Source: a virus
DNA: 64,000 bases
Reading direction: 5' to 3' (one strand)
IMG/VR virus record: IMGVR_UViG_3300037010_003311
Span: 1 to 64,000 of that record
The position numbers and the translations under genes are program-made. Shown one piece after another: positions 47,611-57,418 of this stretch; within the stretch, counting starts at the first letter, position 1, and each line of letters begins with the position of its first letter. The notes beneath the pieces were generated by a model. It saw nothing but the letters and a program-made list of their open reading frames with translations, ran no database searches and was not told the origin of the DNA.

Positions 47611-48378
47611 ATGTTAACCGAGCAAGATAAATTAAAAATCGTTTTAAAAAGTATGTCTAAAAAAAGATATAAAGCAGCGTTAAAAGAGCTTAACAATATT
47701 CCGTTATTTAAAGCTGATGGCAACTATCCGTTGTCGTTAGATGTTAGAGCTGTAATGGCGAATGAGGGTTCGATTGGTTTGGCTAAACTTTTAAGAGATA
47801 CGTTTAGATTTGATTTAACAGATCCAAACGTTAAAGATACCCCAAGTAGAGTAGCTAGTATGTGGGTAAATGAACTTATGGTTGGCAGATATACGGATAA
47901 ACCACGTCTGGAAGCATTTCCCGTCGAGGAAAAACATTTAAGTAAACATAGTATAGAAATGTTGCACGAAGATGCCTCTGTTTTAGAGTACGATGGGATA
48001 ATCATTAAAAAGATTGATGTTCGATCATTATGTTCGCATCATCTTATGCCTTTCTTTTCTGATGGTAAAAAGTCTTTTGCTTTAGTAGCTTATATACCAA
48101 CAACTAAGTTTTTAGGTATTAGTAAAATTCAACGTTTATCTAATTGGTATGGTGCAAGACCATCACTACAAGAGCAATTAACTTGGTCAATATATAAAGA
48201 GATGTGTGACACTCTTGGTACAGACGATGTATTTGTAATTATGAAAAACATTACACATACTTGCGAAACTCTACGTGGAGCTAAAACTGAAGATGGTAGT
48301 ACTACTACTATGTTCTATGGTGGAAAATTTAAAGATATCAAGAAACGTAATGAAGTAATCAATTTGGCAGCAGATTAA
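47611..48378 (+). CDS. folE: GTP cyclohydrolase I (FolE)
   Basis: 255 residues. The enzyme converts GTP to 7,8-dihydroneopterin triphosphate, the first step toward preQ0. Signatures: DVRSLCSHHLMPF with zinc ligands Cys141 and His144, FLGISKIQRLSNWYGARPSL, and THTCETLRGA with the third zinc Cys. An N-terminal helical extension precedes the core. In this window it most likely supplies the deazaguanine pathway with QueE and QueC rather than folate synthesis. Starts after TTCAAGGACCATA. It is followed by a strong GAGGAGG ribosome site for the polymerase fragment. Confidence 0.93.
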   Translation: MLTEQDKLKIVLKSMSKKRYKAALKELNNIPLFKADGNYPLSLDVRAVMANEGSIGLAKLLRDTFRFDLTDPNVKDTPSRVASMWVNELMVGRYTDKPRLEAFPVEEKHLSKHSIEMLHEDASVLEYDGIIIKKIDVRSLCSHHLMPFFSDGKKSFALVAYIPTTKFLGISKIQRLSNWYGARPSLQEQLTWSIYKEMCDTLGTDDVFVIMKNITHTCETLRGAKTEDGSTTTMFYGGKFKDIKKRNEVINLAAD

Positions 48379-48418: not shown

Positions 48419-48877
48419 ATGGAGAATAATGCAATTAATGATCTATGGTTTCTACCATTAGATTTCATTGAAAAGACCGAAAACGATAAGCGTTTAGTGT
48501 ATAGTGATACTGATTCTGTGGTGGGAAATTCAATTATTATAGTAAATGGTAAACCTATTAAAATTGAAGATTTTTATAATTCTTTACCTAATAACTATAT
48601 TGAAGAAAAAGATCATCACTTTGTAAAAAAAAGTGATGGTTTTGTAACGTTAACCGTTAATGATAATCATGAGCTCATAGATAAAGAAATTATTTATTGT
48701 ATGAAGCATTTAGTAAAAAAAAGATTTTTCCGAATTAAAACTGATACAAATGAAGTAATAATCACAGAGGATCATTCATTGATGGTTAAAAGAAATGGTT
48801 ATTTAATTGGTATAAAAGTTAAAGAACTGATGGAAGGTGATGAAATATATGAAATTTCAGAATCCCCCACTTTGTAG
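48419..48877 (+). CDS. DNA polymerase B fragment (N-extein) fused to split-intein N-half
   Basis: 152 residues. Residues 1-32 end in RLVYSDTD, the start of polymerase motif C (YxDTDS). From Ser33 the sequence is an intein N-half: block A SVVGNSIIIVNG and block B EVIITEDHSLMV (Thr116, His119), ending at YEISESPTL-stop. A strong GAGGAGG precedes the ATG. About 120 residues is the usual N-half length of natural split inteins. The chain should trans-splice with the product of 49000, joining YSDTD to SAYLLFDLPF. The extein is very short, so the rest of the palm must come from another gene. Confidence 0.8.
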   Translation: MENNAINDLWFLPLDFIEKTENDKRLVYSDTDSVVGNSIIIVNGKPIKIEDFYNSLPNNYIEEKDHHFVKKSDGFVTLTVNDNHELIDKEIIYCMKHLVKKRFFRIKTDTNEVIITEDHSLMVKRNGYLIGIKVKELMEGDEIYEISESPTL

Positions 48878-49022
48878 AACGTGCTCTAATAAATTGATTG
48901 ATGATTCAATTTGGCAAAAATATATTAATGGTGAAACCGATCTAAAGGATAAAAAATTTTTCAATAATTTTTATTCTAAACTTAAAAAAAGGATATCAAA
49001 TGATATTAAAATTGAAAAATGA
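48849..49022 (+). CDS. Small cysteine protein between the intein halves
   Basis: 57 residues from the ATG at 48849 (GGAAGG upstream); GTG 48837 would add four residues. It overlaps both intein genes in other frames. It has one CxxC knuckle (PPLCRTCSNKLID) and a Lys-rich helix (FFNNFYSKLKKRISNDIKIE). In known fractured genes a free-standing homing endonuclease sits exactly here. This could be the decayed zinc-finger start of one, or an unrelated small protein. Confidence 0.45.
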   Translation: MKFQNPPLCRTCSNKLIDDSIWQKYINGETDLKDKKFFNNFYSKLKKRISNDIKIEK

Positions 49023-50004
49023 TTTTATAGTTGAAGATTTAGGTATTCGAGAAGAATGGGTTTATGATATAGAAGTTAAAGATAATCATAATTTCTTTGC
49101 AAATAATATCTTAGTACACAATTCCGCATATTTGCTATTCGATTTACCATTCAATAAATTTGATGATATCCGGCAACTGGTTGATTATATACAGCAGTTG
49201 TCGACTAAAATTGATACAGAATACAATAATGCTTTAAATTATTATGGTTCAATGTTTGCGGGGTTAAATCCTGAATTCAATATTATGAAATTTAAATCAG
49301 AAGTTGTAGCGTATCAAGGCTTCTTCAACACCAAAAAGTTTTATGCATTGAGTAAAGCTTGGGACGAAGGAGCTTTCTTTGATACGCCAGAAATTAAAAA
49401 GACCGGTGGCCAAATTAAGAAAGCAGACGTTACTAAGATATCGGAACAGCTTTTATCCTTAGTCTATAAAATACTTGTTTTACCATCAGAAACTAAAGAT
49501 CTTGAGTCATTATATAAAAAGATCTTTATTGAGACTAAAAACCGTATTAAAATGCAACTAAAGCATGATATAGATAATCTTGATTTTAAAAGTTTCGGTG
49601 TACCAAAAAAATGGAGTTTTAAAGCTACAAAAGATATGCAGTGGGTAACCGGTGCAAGATTGTATAATCAAATAGTGGAGGATCTTCACCGCCCTGGAGA
49701 TTCAATGTTAACTCTTCCAATTAAAGGGAATTTTAACATTCTTCAAAACTATGATGAACAATTATCTTTAAAAAATAAAGATTTAACTTATCTACTTAAA
49801 GCTGATGATTATAATGATATATCTACTTTAAGTATTCCACCGAATATGAATTCTGAACAAGTACAAAAACTATCAGCGGCATTTGAAAAATATTCAATTC
49901 GAGTAGATTTTGATCAGGTAATGTTATTTAATATAGATATGAAATTGGAAGTATTTGAAAAACTATTTCCCCCAGAAATTAAATTATTGGTAAAGGGAGA
50001 TTGA
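49000..50004 (+). CDS. Split-intein C-half fused to DNA polymerase B C-terminal palm/thumb
   Basis: 334 residues with its own ATG behind AAAAAAAGGATATCAA. Residues 1-41 form the intein C-half: VYDIEVKDNHNFFANNILVHN, block F followed by the terminal His-Asn. Ser42 is the +1 residue. From there SAYLLFDLPFNKFDD completes polymerase motif C. FFNTKKFYALS and IKKTGGQIKKADVT correspond to the KKRY-type region after the active site, and a thumb domain runs to the end. The product needs trans-splicing with 48419 to regain the Asp pair of motif C. Confidence 0.82.
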   Translation: MILKLKNDFIVEDLGIREEWVYDIEVKDNHNFFANNILVHNSAYLLFDLPFNKFDDIRQLVDYIQQLSTKIDTEYNNALNYYGSMFAGLNPEFNIMKFKSEVVAYQGFFNTKKFYALSKAWDEGAFFDTPEIKKTGGQIKKADVTKISEQLLSLVYKILVLPSETKDLESLYKKIFIETKNRIKMQLKHDIDNLDFKSFGVPKKWSFKATKDMQWVTGARLYNQIVEDLHRPGDSMLTLPIKGNFNILQNYDEQLSLKNKDLTYLLKADDYNDISTLSIPPNMNSEQVQKLSAAFEKYSIRVDFDQVMLFNIDMKLEVFEKLFPPEIKLLVKGD

Positions 50005-51089
50005 TGTTAATAGATCCTGCGAATACTCATATTTGTACCCCAGAACTTTATCAACAGTTAATGGATATGATTAAAAAACAACAAATTGCATTTCATCAAT
50101 TTTATAACGTTGAGATAGAAACTGATGAATTACCATTTCTAAATTTCATGCAAACCTATAAAGATAATCAAGCTACAAAGGTTTTAAATAAAACCTACTA
50201 CGATATCGAAACTTATGGTGTCAATGAAAATGGTGAAATAGTAGATGAATTCCCGGAAGTAGATAAAGCTGCGTTTCCAGTAAACGCTGTAGCCTTATAT
50301 AACAATATTACTAATGAAGCTACCATTATATCTTATGTAAATGATTGTAACATTACTGATCCAGTAGCTTTACAAGCTGGGGTTGAAGAATACTATGCTA
50401 AAACGGTCATAGAAAATCCAATCTATGAAATTCAAGATTTAAAAATCATAGTCGAAATAGTTGAAAATGAAAAACAACTTTTCCAATCATTTCATACCAA
50501 AATTCATTCGTTAGATACACTAATGTTGATTGGATTCAATAGTTCATTATTCGATGATGTATATATGATGAATAGAGGATCTAAGCTTTTTGGTGAGGAA
50601 GTATATCATAGTATGGTTTCAGAATTTCAAGTTACCAAATATAGTAGCCGGGTATTTGAGTGGCCAGATTATCTTTTGGTTGATCTATTAAAACTATACC
50701 AACCAGTTGATTCTGGTGGTATGGGCCTAGGCCAATCATTATCAAGTTATAAGCTAGATAATATTGCCGAAGTTGAATTAGGTATACAAAAATTAGATCT
50801 TGATGGGGGTTTCGTAAAAACCTATAGAACCAACATCGTTCAATATTTGACATACAACCTGATGGATACACTATTGACTTTTAAATTAGATCAAAAACTT
50901 CAATTTATTGAGCAAATTTATAGCTTATCGAAGTATAATAATTCGTCGATTGGTGCAACTATTAATGGTCGGTCAATCATGTATAAATATAGAAACGATC
51001 TTATTTATGCTAATCAAAAAAAATTGATCCGTGCTAAAAAATATTCTAGGGAAGTTTTTTATCAGATTGAAAAGGAGGTTAAAAAGTGA
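50004..51089 (+). CDS. DNA polymerase B 3'-5' exonuclease domain as a separate protein
   Basis: 361 residues from the ATG at 50004 (TGATG overlap with the previous gene). The three exonuclease motifs of family B polymerases are present in order: YYDIETYG (Asp67, Glu69), LIGFNSSLFDD near residue 170 and YNLMDTLLTF near 290. The chain ends soon after (YANQKKLIRAKKYSREVFYQ) where a complete polymerase would continue to motif A (DxxSLYPS). It therefore provides proofreading but not synthesis. It is the N-terminal portion of a polymerase yet lies downstream of the C-terminal portion, a permuted gene order. Confidence 0.8.
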   Translation: MLIDPANTHICTPELYQQLMDMIKKQQIAFHQFYNVEIETDELPFLNFMQTYKDNQATKVLNKTYYDIETYGVNENGEIVDEFPEVDKAAFPVNAVALYNNITNEATIISYVNDCNITDPVALQAGVEEYYAKTVIENPIYEIQDLKIIVEIVENEKQLFQSFHTKIHSLDTLMLIGFNSSLFDDVYMMNRGSKLFGEEVYHSMVSEFQVTKYSSRVFEWPDYLLVDLLKLYQPVDSGGMGLGQSLSSYKLDNIAEVELGIQKLDLDGGFVKTYRTNIVQYLTYNLMDTLLTFKLDQKLQFIEQIYSLSKYNNSSIGATINGRSIMYKYRNDLIYANQKKLIRAKKYSREVFYQIEKEVKK

Positions 51090-51540: not shown

Positions 51541-52383
51541 ATGAAAGAAAACGAAAAAAATAGATTCGAGTTAAGTGAAAGGGATCCATATCTTTCACAA
51601 ACTTTTTATAGCTTAGAGGGTGAAGGAATGACTCTAGGGCGAACAGCTTTATTCTTAAGAATAAATGGTTGTAATGCTACTTGTACATTCTGTGACACAA
51701 GTTTTAGTATCAAGGGTGAAGAAAAATATAATCTTGTAAATATGGCAGAACCAGAATTTGTGGATTATCTTCGTAAAGAATACCAGCATCTTGATATTGA
51801 ACATGTGAATTCTATTACTATAACCGGTGGTGAACCACTTAAAAATATTAAACAGTTTAATAGAATGTTTAAAAATATTCTACATGTGTTTCCTAAAGTG
51901 GAGCATGTAATATTCGAAACTAATGGTACCTACCTAAGTTCGACTAGTAACTGTTTAAAGCTATTACGAGAAATTGGAGAATTTATTAATATAGATCAGA
52001 TTAACTTTACTTTAAGTATCAGTCCAAAACTATCCAGTAAAATGAGCTGGAGTAAAACAGATGATGCTGAAGTTTTATCTTGGTATAACGATATTCTTCA
52101 TAATTATAAATATTATCTAAATCGTTATTTAGATATACAAATGAAGTTTATTCAATTTCCAAATGATAGTGAATACTTTAATTTGAATCAAAATCTAATA
52201 AATTTATGTAAGGAATACAATATTCCAAACTATAAGATATTGATTATGCCTTTTACTCCACCAGATCCACTTGGTAAAGATAGTGCTATTTGGACAGAAT
52301 CTAAAGATACTGCGGCGAGATATGCGTTAAAGCATAATTTTAGATACAGTCCTCGTATCCATATTGATCGCAAATTGGATTAA
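51541..52383 (+). CDS. queE: 7-carboxy-7-deazaguanine synthase QueE (radical SAM)
   Basis: 280 residues. It converts 6-carboxy-tetrahydropterin to 7-carboxy-7-deazaguanine. FYSLEGEGMTLGRTALFLR leads to the iron-sulphur cluster motif NGCNATCTFCDT (Cys44, Cys48, Cys51; C-x3-C-x2-C), then TITGGEPLKN binds SAM. It is larger than the smallest QueE proteins but within range. It acts after FolE and QueD and before QueC. QueD is not in the window and could come from the host or elsewhere in the phage. Confidence 0.92.
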   Translation: MKENEKNRFELSERDPYLSQTFYSLEGEGMTLGRTALFLRINGCNATCTFCDTSFSIKGEEKYNLVNMAEPEFVDYLRKEYQHLDIEHVNSITITGGEPLKNIKQFNRMFKNILHVFPKVEHVIFETNGTYLSSTSNCLKLLREIGEFINIDQINFTLSISPKLSSKMSWSKTDDAEVLSWYNDILHNYKYYLNRYLDIQMKFIQFPNDSEYFNLNQNLINLCKEYNIPNYKILIMPFTPPDPLGKDSAIWTESKDTAARYALKHNFRYSPRIHIDRKLD

Positions 52384-55433: not shown

Positions 55434-55865
55434 TTGATAGATTTAAAAATGAGTGAAACAGAAGTATCTCCACCAGCAATTGCGGAAGTAAATGCCTCTA
55501 CCGATTTAGATACTGGTGGGAAATATACAAAGATTATAAATCTTACGAATCATAAACTAACGGAAATTCTTAGTGGGATCCAAATTGATTTCTCTGAGAG
55601 TGGCGTAGCTAGAGTTGATTGTAGAGATGAAATCATTTATCGTGATCCATCTGGTTATACAATTTCTCGTACAAAATATGTACATATTGTTGGCATCGAT
55701 TTGGATAATATTAATCCAAATCATTTATACATAGTTTCAGCTGTGGTATTGAATGCCATTCGTGAACGTGGATTACAATTTGATAATATTGTGGCACCAG
55801 CTAAAATCATTAGGGATAGTGATAACAACGTTATTGCGGCTAGGGGGTTCCGAGTAAATGGTTAA
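55434..55865 (+). CDS. Conserved phage-type protein, TTG start
   Basis: 143 residues from the TTG at 55434 after AAAAGGATTAAT. The pattern KIINLTNHKLTEILSGIQID, SGVARVDCRDE, and then LYIVSAVVLNAIRERGLQFD and APAKIIRDSDNNVIAARGF matches a protein type common in phages (NLTPH ... YIVS ... RD-G-VIG). Function unknown. The stop overlaps the next ATG. Confidence 0.6.
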   Translation: MIDLKMSETEVSPPAIAEVNASTDLDTGGKYTKIINLTNHKLTEILSGIQIDFSESGVARVDCRDEIIYRDPSGYTISRTKYVHIVGIDLDNINPNHLYIVSAVVLNAIRERGLQFDNIVAPAKIIRDSDNNVIAARGFRVNG

Positions 55866-57418
55866 TGGAAAAGTTAAAATTAGAAATTGAGCAAAAATTA
55901 TTCAATTCCAGGAACCGAATCGATTATGTATATTTGAAAAAATATCCAGAAATCTTAAATCGGGCCCAAGAGCATATGACTGGATTTGATGATAAGATTA
56001 CTTCATCTCAATTAGTTTTATTTTTTTACGAAGGTATATTGTCACCACCTAAGTGTCAGAACGCACATTGTGAAAAATATGTTAAGTGGTGGTCGAATAA
56101 AAAATGCTTTTCCAAATATTGTTGCATAAAATGTAGTAATTCTGATCCAGAAAAAGATCAAACAACTATTAAAAATAATATGGAAAAATATGGTGTACCA
56201 AGAGCATCTATGACCACTGAATCTAAACAGAAACTTTTAAATACTAATTTGTGCCGGTATGGTGTAAGTAGTACCGCTCAATTAAAAGAAGTAAAAGATA
56301 AAGCTAAACAAACCTGTTTAAAAAAGTATAATTATATATCAAGTTCTATATCCGATATAAAAAATCTGGAAGAATATTCTAATCGGGATTTTATAATTGA
56401 AAATTTTATAAACGATAATATTTTTGATTTATATGGATTTCGAAATTATTTTAATTGTGGTCAAGTTGCTGCTCATAATACTTTAAACCGCTTAAATATT
56501 GATTATAATAAGTACGCGGCAAGAAATACTTTTATAGAGCGGATCGTTGAAGATTTTTTAAAAGAAAATAATATAACTTTTATCAAAAATGATAGAATGG
56601 TTCTTAATGGTAAAGAACTTGATTTCTATTTACCAGAGCATAAGCTTGGAGTAGAATTAAATGGTTTATATTGGCATAGTTATAATACAAAAACAAAAAT
56701 TTTAAAATCAAAAAAAGATATTAAAAATTTTCACCGTATTAAAACCGATAGATGTGAAGAACAGAATATACAACTTTTTCATATATTCGAAAATGAAATT
56801 CTTTATAAGTTTGAGATATGGAAATCAGTATTAGAAAACACTCTTGGTAGAAGCATACAACTAGAAGCCGAGGATCATACTATTAAGCCGGTACCCAAAT
56901 ATGATATAAAACCATTTCTAGAAGCTAATCACTTACAAGGTTACTGCTCAAGTTCAATTGCTTATGGTCTGTATTATAATAACAATAATACTGGAATACC
57001 AGAGCTAATAAGCATTATGACTTTTACTAAAGGTAGTGGAAGTGCTGATTGGGAGCTAATGCGATTTTGTAATAAACTTGGTTATAATGTTTATGGTGCA
57101 GCAAGCAGATTGCTTAAAGCATTTCGGGTTGGGTACAAAGGAAATATTAAAACCTGTGTAAATAGGCGCTGGTCGAATGGTAACTTATACCGACAACTTG
57201 GTTTCCAAGAAATTGGTATAAGTGAACCGAATAAATTCATTATTAATTTTAATAAGATTAATAATTTATATAGTAGACTAGCTTTTCAAAAATACAAATT
57301 GCCAAAAAATTCAAATTTCGATAATACTTTATCAGCTGATGAAAATATCATAAATAATGGTTATGGAATCATTTGGGATTCTGGTCAAATAAATTTTATC
57401 TTAAAAGGAGATATATGA
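55865..57418 (+). CDS. Vsr-like (EDxHD) homing endonuclease
   Basis: 517 residues. Zinc-finger region (CQNAHC, CFSKYCCIKC; about 60-95). A NUMOD-like repeat region with KYGVPRASMTTESKQKLLN and RYGVSSTAQLKEVK (about 115-160). Then a Vsr/EDxHD-type nuclease core (FIERIVEDFLKENNITF; GKELDFYLPEHKLGVELNGL then YWHSY; RCEEQNIQLFHIFENE), and a C-terminal domain with TCVNRRWSNGNLYRQLGF. Such free-standing endonucleases cut intronless or intein-less alleles and spread with them; this type is associated with fractured genes and split inteins. It lies 6 kb from the split intein, just before dpdA. Confidence 0.72.
   Translation: MEKLKLEIEQKLFNSRNRIDYVYLKKYPEILNRAQEHMTGFDDKITSSQLVLFFYEGILSPPKCQNAHCEKYVKWWSNKKCFSKYCCIKCSNSDPEKDQTTIKNNMEKYGVPRASMTTESKQKLLNTNLCRYGVSSTAQLKEVKDKAKQTCLKKYNYISSSISDIKNLEEYSNRDFIIENFINDNIFDLYGFRNYFNCGQVAAHNTLNRLNIDYNKYAARNTFIERIVEDFLKENNITFIKNDRMVLNGKELDFYLPEHKLGVELNGLYWHSYNTKTKILKSKKDIKNFHRIKTDRCEEQNIQLFHIFENEILYKFEIWKSVLENTLGRSIQLEAEDHTIKPVPKYDIKPFLEANHLQGYCSSSIAYGLYYNNNNTGIPELISIMTFTKGSGSADWELMRFCNKLGYNVYGAASRLLKAFRVGYKGNIKTCVNRRWSNGNLYRQLGFQEIGISEPNKFIINFNKINNLYSRLAFQKYKLPKNSNFDNTLSADENIINNGYGIIWDSGQINFILKGDI

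What the first reader, a model, noticed from the sequence alone, without database searches (positions are those of the whole stretch)
48419..50004. DNA polymerase B fractured by a naturally split intein at the motif C active site
Seen: the upstream gene ends its extein with YSDTD at residue 32 and continues as an intein N-half (block A SVVGNSIIIVNG, block B TEDHSLMV) to a stop. A separate downstream gene with its own ribosome site opens as a 41-residue intein C-half (VYDIEVKDNHNFFANNILVHN) followed by SAYLLFDLPF, which completes motif C. Known: split inteins at conserved sites, with a small gene between the halves, are the 'fractured gene' arrangement described from environmental phage data. 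Inference: polymerase activity depends on protein trans-splicing.
Basis: partly seen in the sequence, partly recalled or inferred. Interest (0 to 1): 0.9.

Follow-up and report, generated by a model that had tools for sequence, protein, structure and literature searches.

The report
Phage polymerase rebuilt by split intein
In this uncultured large-phage genome the only recognisable replicative DNA polymerase is scattered over four reading frames, two of which are predicted to be stitched into one protein by a split intein exactly at the catalytic site; the split-intein trick is already known from other phages, but the three-protein polymerase with rotated gene order underneath it is unusual.

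Summary
Observation confirmed. Window 48419-48877 encodes a 32-aa N-extein ending YSDTD plus a 120-aa intein N-half; 49000-50004 encodes a 41-aa intein C-half followed by SAYLL... and the PolB thumb. Both halves match the solved Aes123 PolB1 intein 9HTH (E 1.8e-24 and 3.5e-8), and Ser1, TxxH, NX (KH), HN and Ser+1 are present. Five uncultured relatives have the same gene uninterrupted (e.g. YADTD|SAYLL), which fixes the insertion point; two others carry the same split intein. The 61-aa ORF between the halves is a deletion remnant of the VSR-type homing endonuclease that is intact in relative L004.

Exonuclease (50004-51089) and palm/fingers (motifs A and B, contig 88924-90168, outside the window) are separate genes, and the order motif-C/thumb, exo, palm is a circular permutation, kept in three contigs. 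The three products tile one T4-type PolB profile.

A split intein at this PolB site with a VSR endonuclease between the halves is known (Aeromonas Aes508/Aes123, Campylobacter CP21, Tenacibaculum PTm1); Aes and CP21 splice in vitro. So: new variant of a known kind. Trans-splicing and three-subunit assembly here are inferred; both structure predictions were uninformative.

The parts
48419..48514 (+). N-extein, 32 aa, ends YSDTD (motif C aspartates)
   Evidence: aligns with the start of uninterrupted homologues such as L032 5005 (MISENHPWFLPENFIEKTDTDDVLLYADTD|SAYLL)
48515..48874 (+). Intein N-half (120 aa): Ser1, NX motif KH (intein residues 64-65), TEDH (84-87); stop codon at 48875-48877
   Evidence: 9HTH E=1.8e-24; PF14890 positions 5-93 E=2.9e-6, below cut-off; 50% identical to CP21 IntN, 44% to Aes IntN
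48837..49022 (+). 61-aa ORF: deletion remnant of a VSR-type homing endonuclease gene (first ~29 and last ~21 residues kept, core missing)
   Evidence: Aligns to residues 1-29 and 351-371 of the intact L004 endonuclease; 0 of 1000 shuffles reach either score against the matching end (blastp)
49000..49122 (+). Intein C-half (41 aa), ends LVHN
   Evidence: 9HTH E=3.5e-8; PF14890 positions 132-155; 73-77% identical to L004 and L005
49123..50004 (+). C-extein: Ser+1, rest of motif C, palm end and thumb of PolB (293 aa)
   Evidence: phrog_262 DNA polymerase positions 581-793 of 856, E=7.2e-13
50004..51089 (+). PolB 3'-5' exonuclease gene (ATG at 50004 overlaps the thumb stop codon as TGATG)
   Evidence: PF03104 E=9.1e-8 over cut-off; phrog_262 positions 102-350, E=1.8e-34; exo motifs YDIE, NSSLFDD, YNLMD

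Best explanation
The phage makes its family B DNA polymerase from three proteins. Gene 1 (motif C plus thumb) is interrupted at the codon after YSDTD by a naturally split Ser1/Ser+1 intein, so it is two ORFs. The two translated halves (N-extein-IntN and IntC-thumb) associate, splice in trans by Ser1/Ser+1 oxyester chemistry with Asn cyclisation, and release a 325-aa protein reading ...LVYSDTD-SAYLLFDLPF..., which restores motif C. This protein then assembles non-covalently with the separate exonuclease protein (gene 2, directly downstream) and the palm/fingers protein with motifs A and B (gene 3, 39 kb downstream). Shown here: the pieces, their homology, the insertion point from uninterrupted homologues, the endonuclease remnant, and the conserved gene order. 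Inferred: that splicing occurs in this phage, that the three proteins form one enzyme, and that replication depends on it. Origin (inferred): an intein with a VSR-type homing endonuclease entered an already detached polymerase gene; the endonuclease has since decayed here and in L005 but is intact in L004.
For: 9HTH and Pfam intein matches to both halves. Intein residues needed by Ser1 inteins present, including the NX histidine preceded by Lys. Relatives Aes and CP21 were shown to trans-splice in vitro (PMC11923092, PMC12707363). Five uninterrupted homologues (L032, L035, L037, L038, L039) and two with the same split intein (L004, L005). The three products tile phrog_262 without overlap: exo 102-350, palm/fingers 382-550, motif C/thumb 567-767 in L032 and 581-793 here. 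Order thumb, exo, palm on one strand in three contigs: G000, G001 and L036. Palm fragments of G000, G001 and L105 all end soon after motif B. No PolA or PolIII alpha match in the contig. Endonuclease intact in L004, remnant in window and L005.
Against: No expression or splicing data. Pfam intein scores are below the curated cut-off. The window palm ORF passes only weakly in Pfam (E=3.6e-4, below cut-off), although its relative in L104 passes and PHROGs match strongly. AlphaFold models of the thumb protein (pLDDT 65) and palm protein (pLDDT 52) were too poor to test the fold. The palm gene was not found in five partial relative contigs. The contig is not known to be complete.
Confidence: 0.82

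Rival explanations
1. The split intein splices, but the joined motif C/thumb protein is not part of the working replicase: the fragments are a decaying polymerase and another polymerase replicates the genome.
For: The polymerase is in four ORFs and spread over about 42 kb; the contig may be incomplete.
Against: Exonuclease motifs, motifs A and B and motif C are all intact; eight relatives keep exo and/or thumb genes with 38-54% identity and open frames; no PolA or PolIII alpha match in the contig.
Confidence: 0.1
2. The intein halves no longer splice; the 32-aa peptide and the thumb protein complement each other without a covalent join.
For: The N-extein is only one short segment, so non-covalent complementation is conceivable; IntN of relatives Aes and CP21 aggregates and splices incompletely in vitro.
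Against: All catalytic intein residues are conserved in the window copy; the IntC is 73-77% identical to those of L004 and L005, more conserved than the thumb (44-46%), as expected under selection for splicing.
Confidence: 0.06
3. Assembly or frameshift error splits a contiguous intein-containing gene.
For: Contiguous inteins at the same PolB site exist in L006 and L020.
Against: The same two-gene layout with separate start codons and ribosome sites occurs in L004 and L005 from other metagenomes; remnants of the same endonuclease lie between the halves.
Confidence: 0.01

Closest known systems
Aes123/Aes508 PolB1 split intein of Aeromonas salmonicida phages (JN377894; structure 9HTH)
   Same: Same insertion point in PolB motif C (DTD|S), Ser1/Ser+1, typical split, VSR-type endonuclease gene between the halves, polymerase also split elsewhere (gp43A/gp43B)
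   Different: There the N-half follows the rest of the gp43B palm and the gene order is linear; here the N-extein is only 32 aa, palm/fingers is a distant gene, order is rotated, and the endonuclease is a remnant
CP21 PolB1 split intein of Campylobacter phage CP21
   Same: Highest identity of the inteins compared (54% over 153 columns; IntN 58/115, IntC 25/38), one non-conserved Cys, endonuclease of the same family between the halves
   Different: Host polymerase is a T4-like gp43 in linear order
Tenacibaculum phage PTm1 split PolB
   Same: Large phage (225 kb), polymerase in several genes, split intein at motif C with VSR endonuclease between
   Different: Exo stays joined to motif A, motif B stays joined to the N-extein (about 145 aa), linear order
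Nanoarchaeum equitans split Pol intein (own knowledge; structure mentioned in PMC10189870)
   Same: Split intein in a family B polymerase
   Different: Archaeal, two-gene polymerase; not compared here
Bacillus phage AR9 / PBS1 PolB fragment
   Same: Large phage with PolB in pieces: g132 annotated as exonuclease and partial catalytic domain
   Different: Exo and motif A remain together; no intein seen in the stretch examined

Membership tests
Class 1 split intein, Ser1/Ser+1 ('cysteine-less' type) | Intein N-half and C-half matching the Hint/intein fold, in separate genes | tested here: met
   9HTH matches for both halves, PF14890 split 5-93 / 132-155; two ORFs 122 nt apart
Class 1 split intein, Ser1/Ser+1 ('cysteine-less' type) | Ser1, TxxH, terminal HN, Ser+1 | tested here: met
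   S1, T84-E-D-H87, VHN, S+1
Class 1 split intein, Ser1/Ser+1 ('cysteine-less' type) | NX-motif histidine preceded by Arg/Lys | tested here: met
   MKH at intein residues 63-65, aligned with the NX region of relatives
Class 1 split intein, Ser1/Ser+1 ('cysteine-less' type) | Complete absence of cysteine | tested here: not met
   One Cys (intein residue 62, IIYCMKH), at a non-catalytic position; LCGC14, CP21 and GOM-OPS-1 also each have one
Class 1 split intein, Ser1/Ser+1 ('cysteine-less' type) | Protein trans-splicing activity | not testable with these tools
   Needs expression; relatives Aes and CP21 are active
Fractured gene with split intein and endonuclease between the halves (Dassa et al. 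type) | Intein halves separated by a free-standing homing endonuclease gene | tested here: met
   Intact VSR-type endonuclease in L004, deletion remnant in the window, N-terminal remnant in L005
Family B DNA polymerase, T4 gp43-like | Exonuclease, palm/fingers (motifs A, B), motif C/thumb present once | tested here: met
   Tiling of phrog_262 by three products; PF03104; PF00136 in the L104 palm relative
Family B DNA polymerase, T4 gp43-like | Fold of the fragments | tested here: inconclusive
   Low-confidence models, no meaningful Foldseek hits

The most novel reading that the evidence does not exclude
A replicative PolB assembled from three separate polypeptides with rotated gene order, in which motif A and motif C, the two halves of the metal site, come from different proteins, and one of those proteins is itself made by trans-splicing of a 32-aa N-extein. 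The fracture points are flanked by homing endonuclease genes in relatives, suggesting repeated endonuclease-driven breakage of one essential gene.
Probability: 0.65. Interest if true: 0.7.

Novelty: new variant of a known kind. Interest (0 to 1): 0.55.

Why it matters
If three separate proteins form one polymerase, the metal-binding carboxylates of a replicative PolB can sit on two different chains, and a phage tolerates a replication enzyme that needs both subunit assembly and protein splicing. The lineage also preserves several stages in uncultured relatives (no intein, intein with intact endonuclease, intein with endonuclease remnants), which makes the homing cycle of a split intein traceable. 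The intein itself is another Ser1/Ser+1 candidate for protein-engineering use.

Tried and rejected
Structure prediction of the uninterrupted thumb protein (L032) and of the palm protein (L104) gave low confidence (pLDDT 65 and 52), and Foldseek of the first gave no meaningful match; not used as evidence. A tree of 19 PolB inteins resolved almost nothing (one starred branch) and did not show whether the inteins of window, L004 and L005 share one origin. The palm query found nothing in isolated phages and nothing in five partial relative contigs. Exo profile found no relative in bacterial or archaeal genome contigs, so the host is unknown. Rfam found no intron or other RNA in the window. Literature searches found no report of a three-gene, rotated PolB, but the library holds only open-licence papers; Dassa et al. 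and the 2019 Aes123 paper were not held.

Full report
What is there. The window is bases 1-64000 of a 226,657-base virus contig. ORF 48419-48877 encodes 32 residues ending YSDTD and then 120 residues beginning SVVGNS; ORF 49000-50004 encodes 41 residues ending LVHN, then SAYLLFDLPF and the rest of a polymerase thumb. Against the PDB the first ORF matches 9HTH at 1.8e-24 over its whole intein part and the second matches 9HTH at 3.5e-8 over the IntC. 9HTH is the Aes123 PolB1 split intein of Aeromonas phages (PMC11923092). Pfam's intein model is divided cleanly between the two ORFs, though each half alone scores below the cut-off. Ser1, TEDH, HN and Ser+1 are present, as is the NX-motif histidine preceded by Lys, which was reported as the signature of Ser1 inteins (PMC10189870). 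There is one non-catalytic Cys.

The insertion point is proven by comparison. Five uncultured relatives (L032, L035, L037, L038, L039; 38-48% identical over this protein) carry the same gene without an intein: 320-336 residues that begin about 30-40 residues before YxDTDS. L032 reads LLYADTDSAYLLYDLPF across the site. L004 and L005 carry the same split intein at the same codon. So the 32-residue N-extein is simply the start of a small gene, and the two-ORF layout is not a sequencing error.

The ORF between the halves. In L004 the gap holds a 373-residue protein homologous to the endonucleases found between the intein halves in Campylobacter CP21 (35%, 1e-59), Vibrio VPALA, Tenacibaculum PTm1 and Aeromonas Aes508, the last annotated as VSR-like. 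The 61-residue window ORF aligns with its first 29 and last 21 residues, neither score reached in 1000 shuffles against the matching end, so it is an internally deleted remnant. L005 keeps only an N-terminal remnant (PKCVECGETEIDDIIWDNY). No full copy was found elsewhere in the contig. This is the expected decay of a homing endonuclease.

The rest of the polymerase. The gene right after the thumb is the exonuclease (PF03104 over cut-off), its ATG overlapping the thumb stop. Motif A (DARSLYPTIM) and motif B (KTTLNTGYG) lie in a 414-residue ORF at contig 88924-90168. Against the T4-type PolB profile phrog_262 the pieces tile in order: exo 102-350 (1.8e-34), palm/fingers 382-550 (6.9e-17), motif C/thumb 567-767 for L032 and 581-793 here (4e-23, 7e-13). 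The palm protein has about 200 extra residues between motifs A and B. Relatives of the palm protein in G001 and L105 (50-52%) match the same profile and end at the same place after motif B. In the window contig, in G001 and in L036 the order on one strand is thumb, exo, palm. That is a circular permutation of the usual order exo, palm, thumb. Because intein-free relatives share the detached thumb gene placed before exo, the fracture is independent of the intein and probably older. No PolA or PolIII alpha match was found. In relatives, endonuclease genes sit directly after exo (L036, L038, L039) or overlap the palm end (L029), so endonuclease-driven fracture is plausible; this is inference.

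How it most likely works. The two halves associate and splice in trans, giving a 325-residue protein with intact motif C. From established polymerase structure (own knowledge), motif A and motif C supply the metal-binding aspartates; here the motif C aspartates are the last residues of the N-extein, so without splicing they are not linked to the thumb protein. The spliced protein would join the exo and palm proteins non-covalently. Splicing is supported by activity of relatives: CP21 and Aes trans-splice in vitro, incompletely because their N-halves aggregate. Nothing was measured for this phage. AlphaFold models were poor and do not bear on the question.

What is known and what is new. A split intein at this PolB codon with a VSR-type endonuclease between the halves is an established arrangement, annotated in Aeromonas phages and present in at least ten further viral contigs here; contiguous versions also exist (L006, L020). 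The intein tree is unresolved. I found no earlier description of a PolB in three genes with rotated order and with motifs A and C on different proteins, but the literature available was limited. Hence: new variant of a known kind.

Noticed in passing
L004:8518-9825: QueE-like radical SAM protein with a mini-intein of about 157 aa inside the CX3CX2C iron-sulphur motif (RCNF|CFGSPKG...VHN|CDTAYS; PF14890 1.7e-7, PT-HINT over cut-off). The window QueE homologue (51541-52383) has no intein.
   Followed up: partly
window 47611-48378 and 51541-52383: GTP cyclohydrolase I (PF01227, 5.7e-35) and QueE-like radical SAM gene flank the polymerase genes; suggests a 7-deazaguanine pathway, possibly DNA modification. 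The same two genes flank the polymerase cluster in L004 and L032.
   Followed up: no
window 55865-57418: 517-aa homing endonuclease relative (phrog_3339 6e-95; DUF7487 over cut-off; weak Vsr match), free-standing.
   Followed up: partly
L039:3653-4411: Endonuclease-like ORF directly after exo ends with a copy of the exo C-terminus (KLNKEIHFEV), as if its insertion duplicated the 3' end of the exo gene.
   Followed up: no
L006, L020 (PolB motif C): Contiguous, unsplit inteins at the same PolB site in other viral contigs, while most contigs found have the split form.
   Followed up: partly
L009:4049-5421: Another T4-like contig whose split intein has a short N-extein ORF (26 aa) and only 17 nt between the halves, with no endonuclease.
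   Followed up: no
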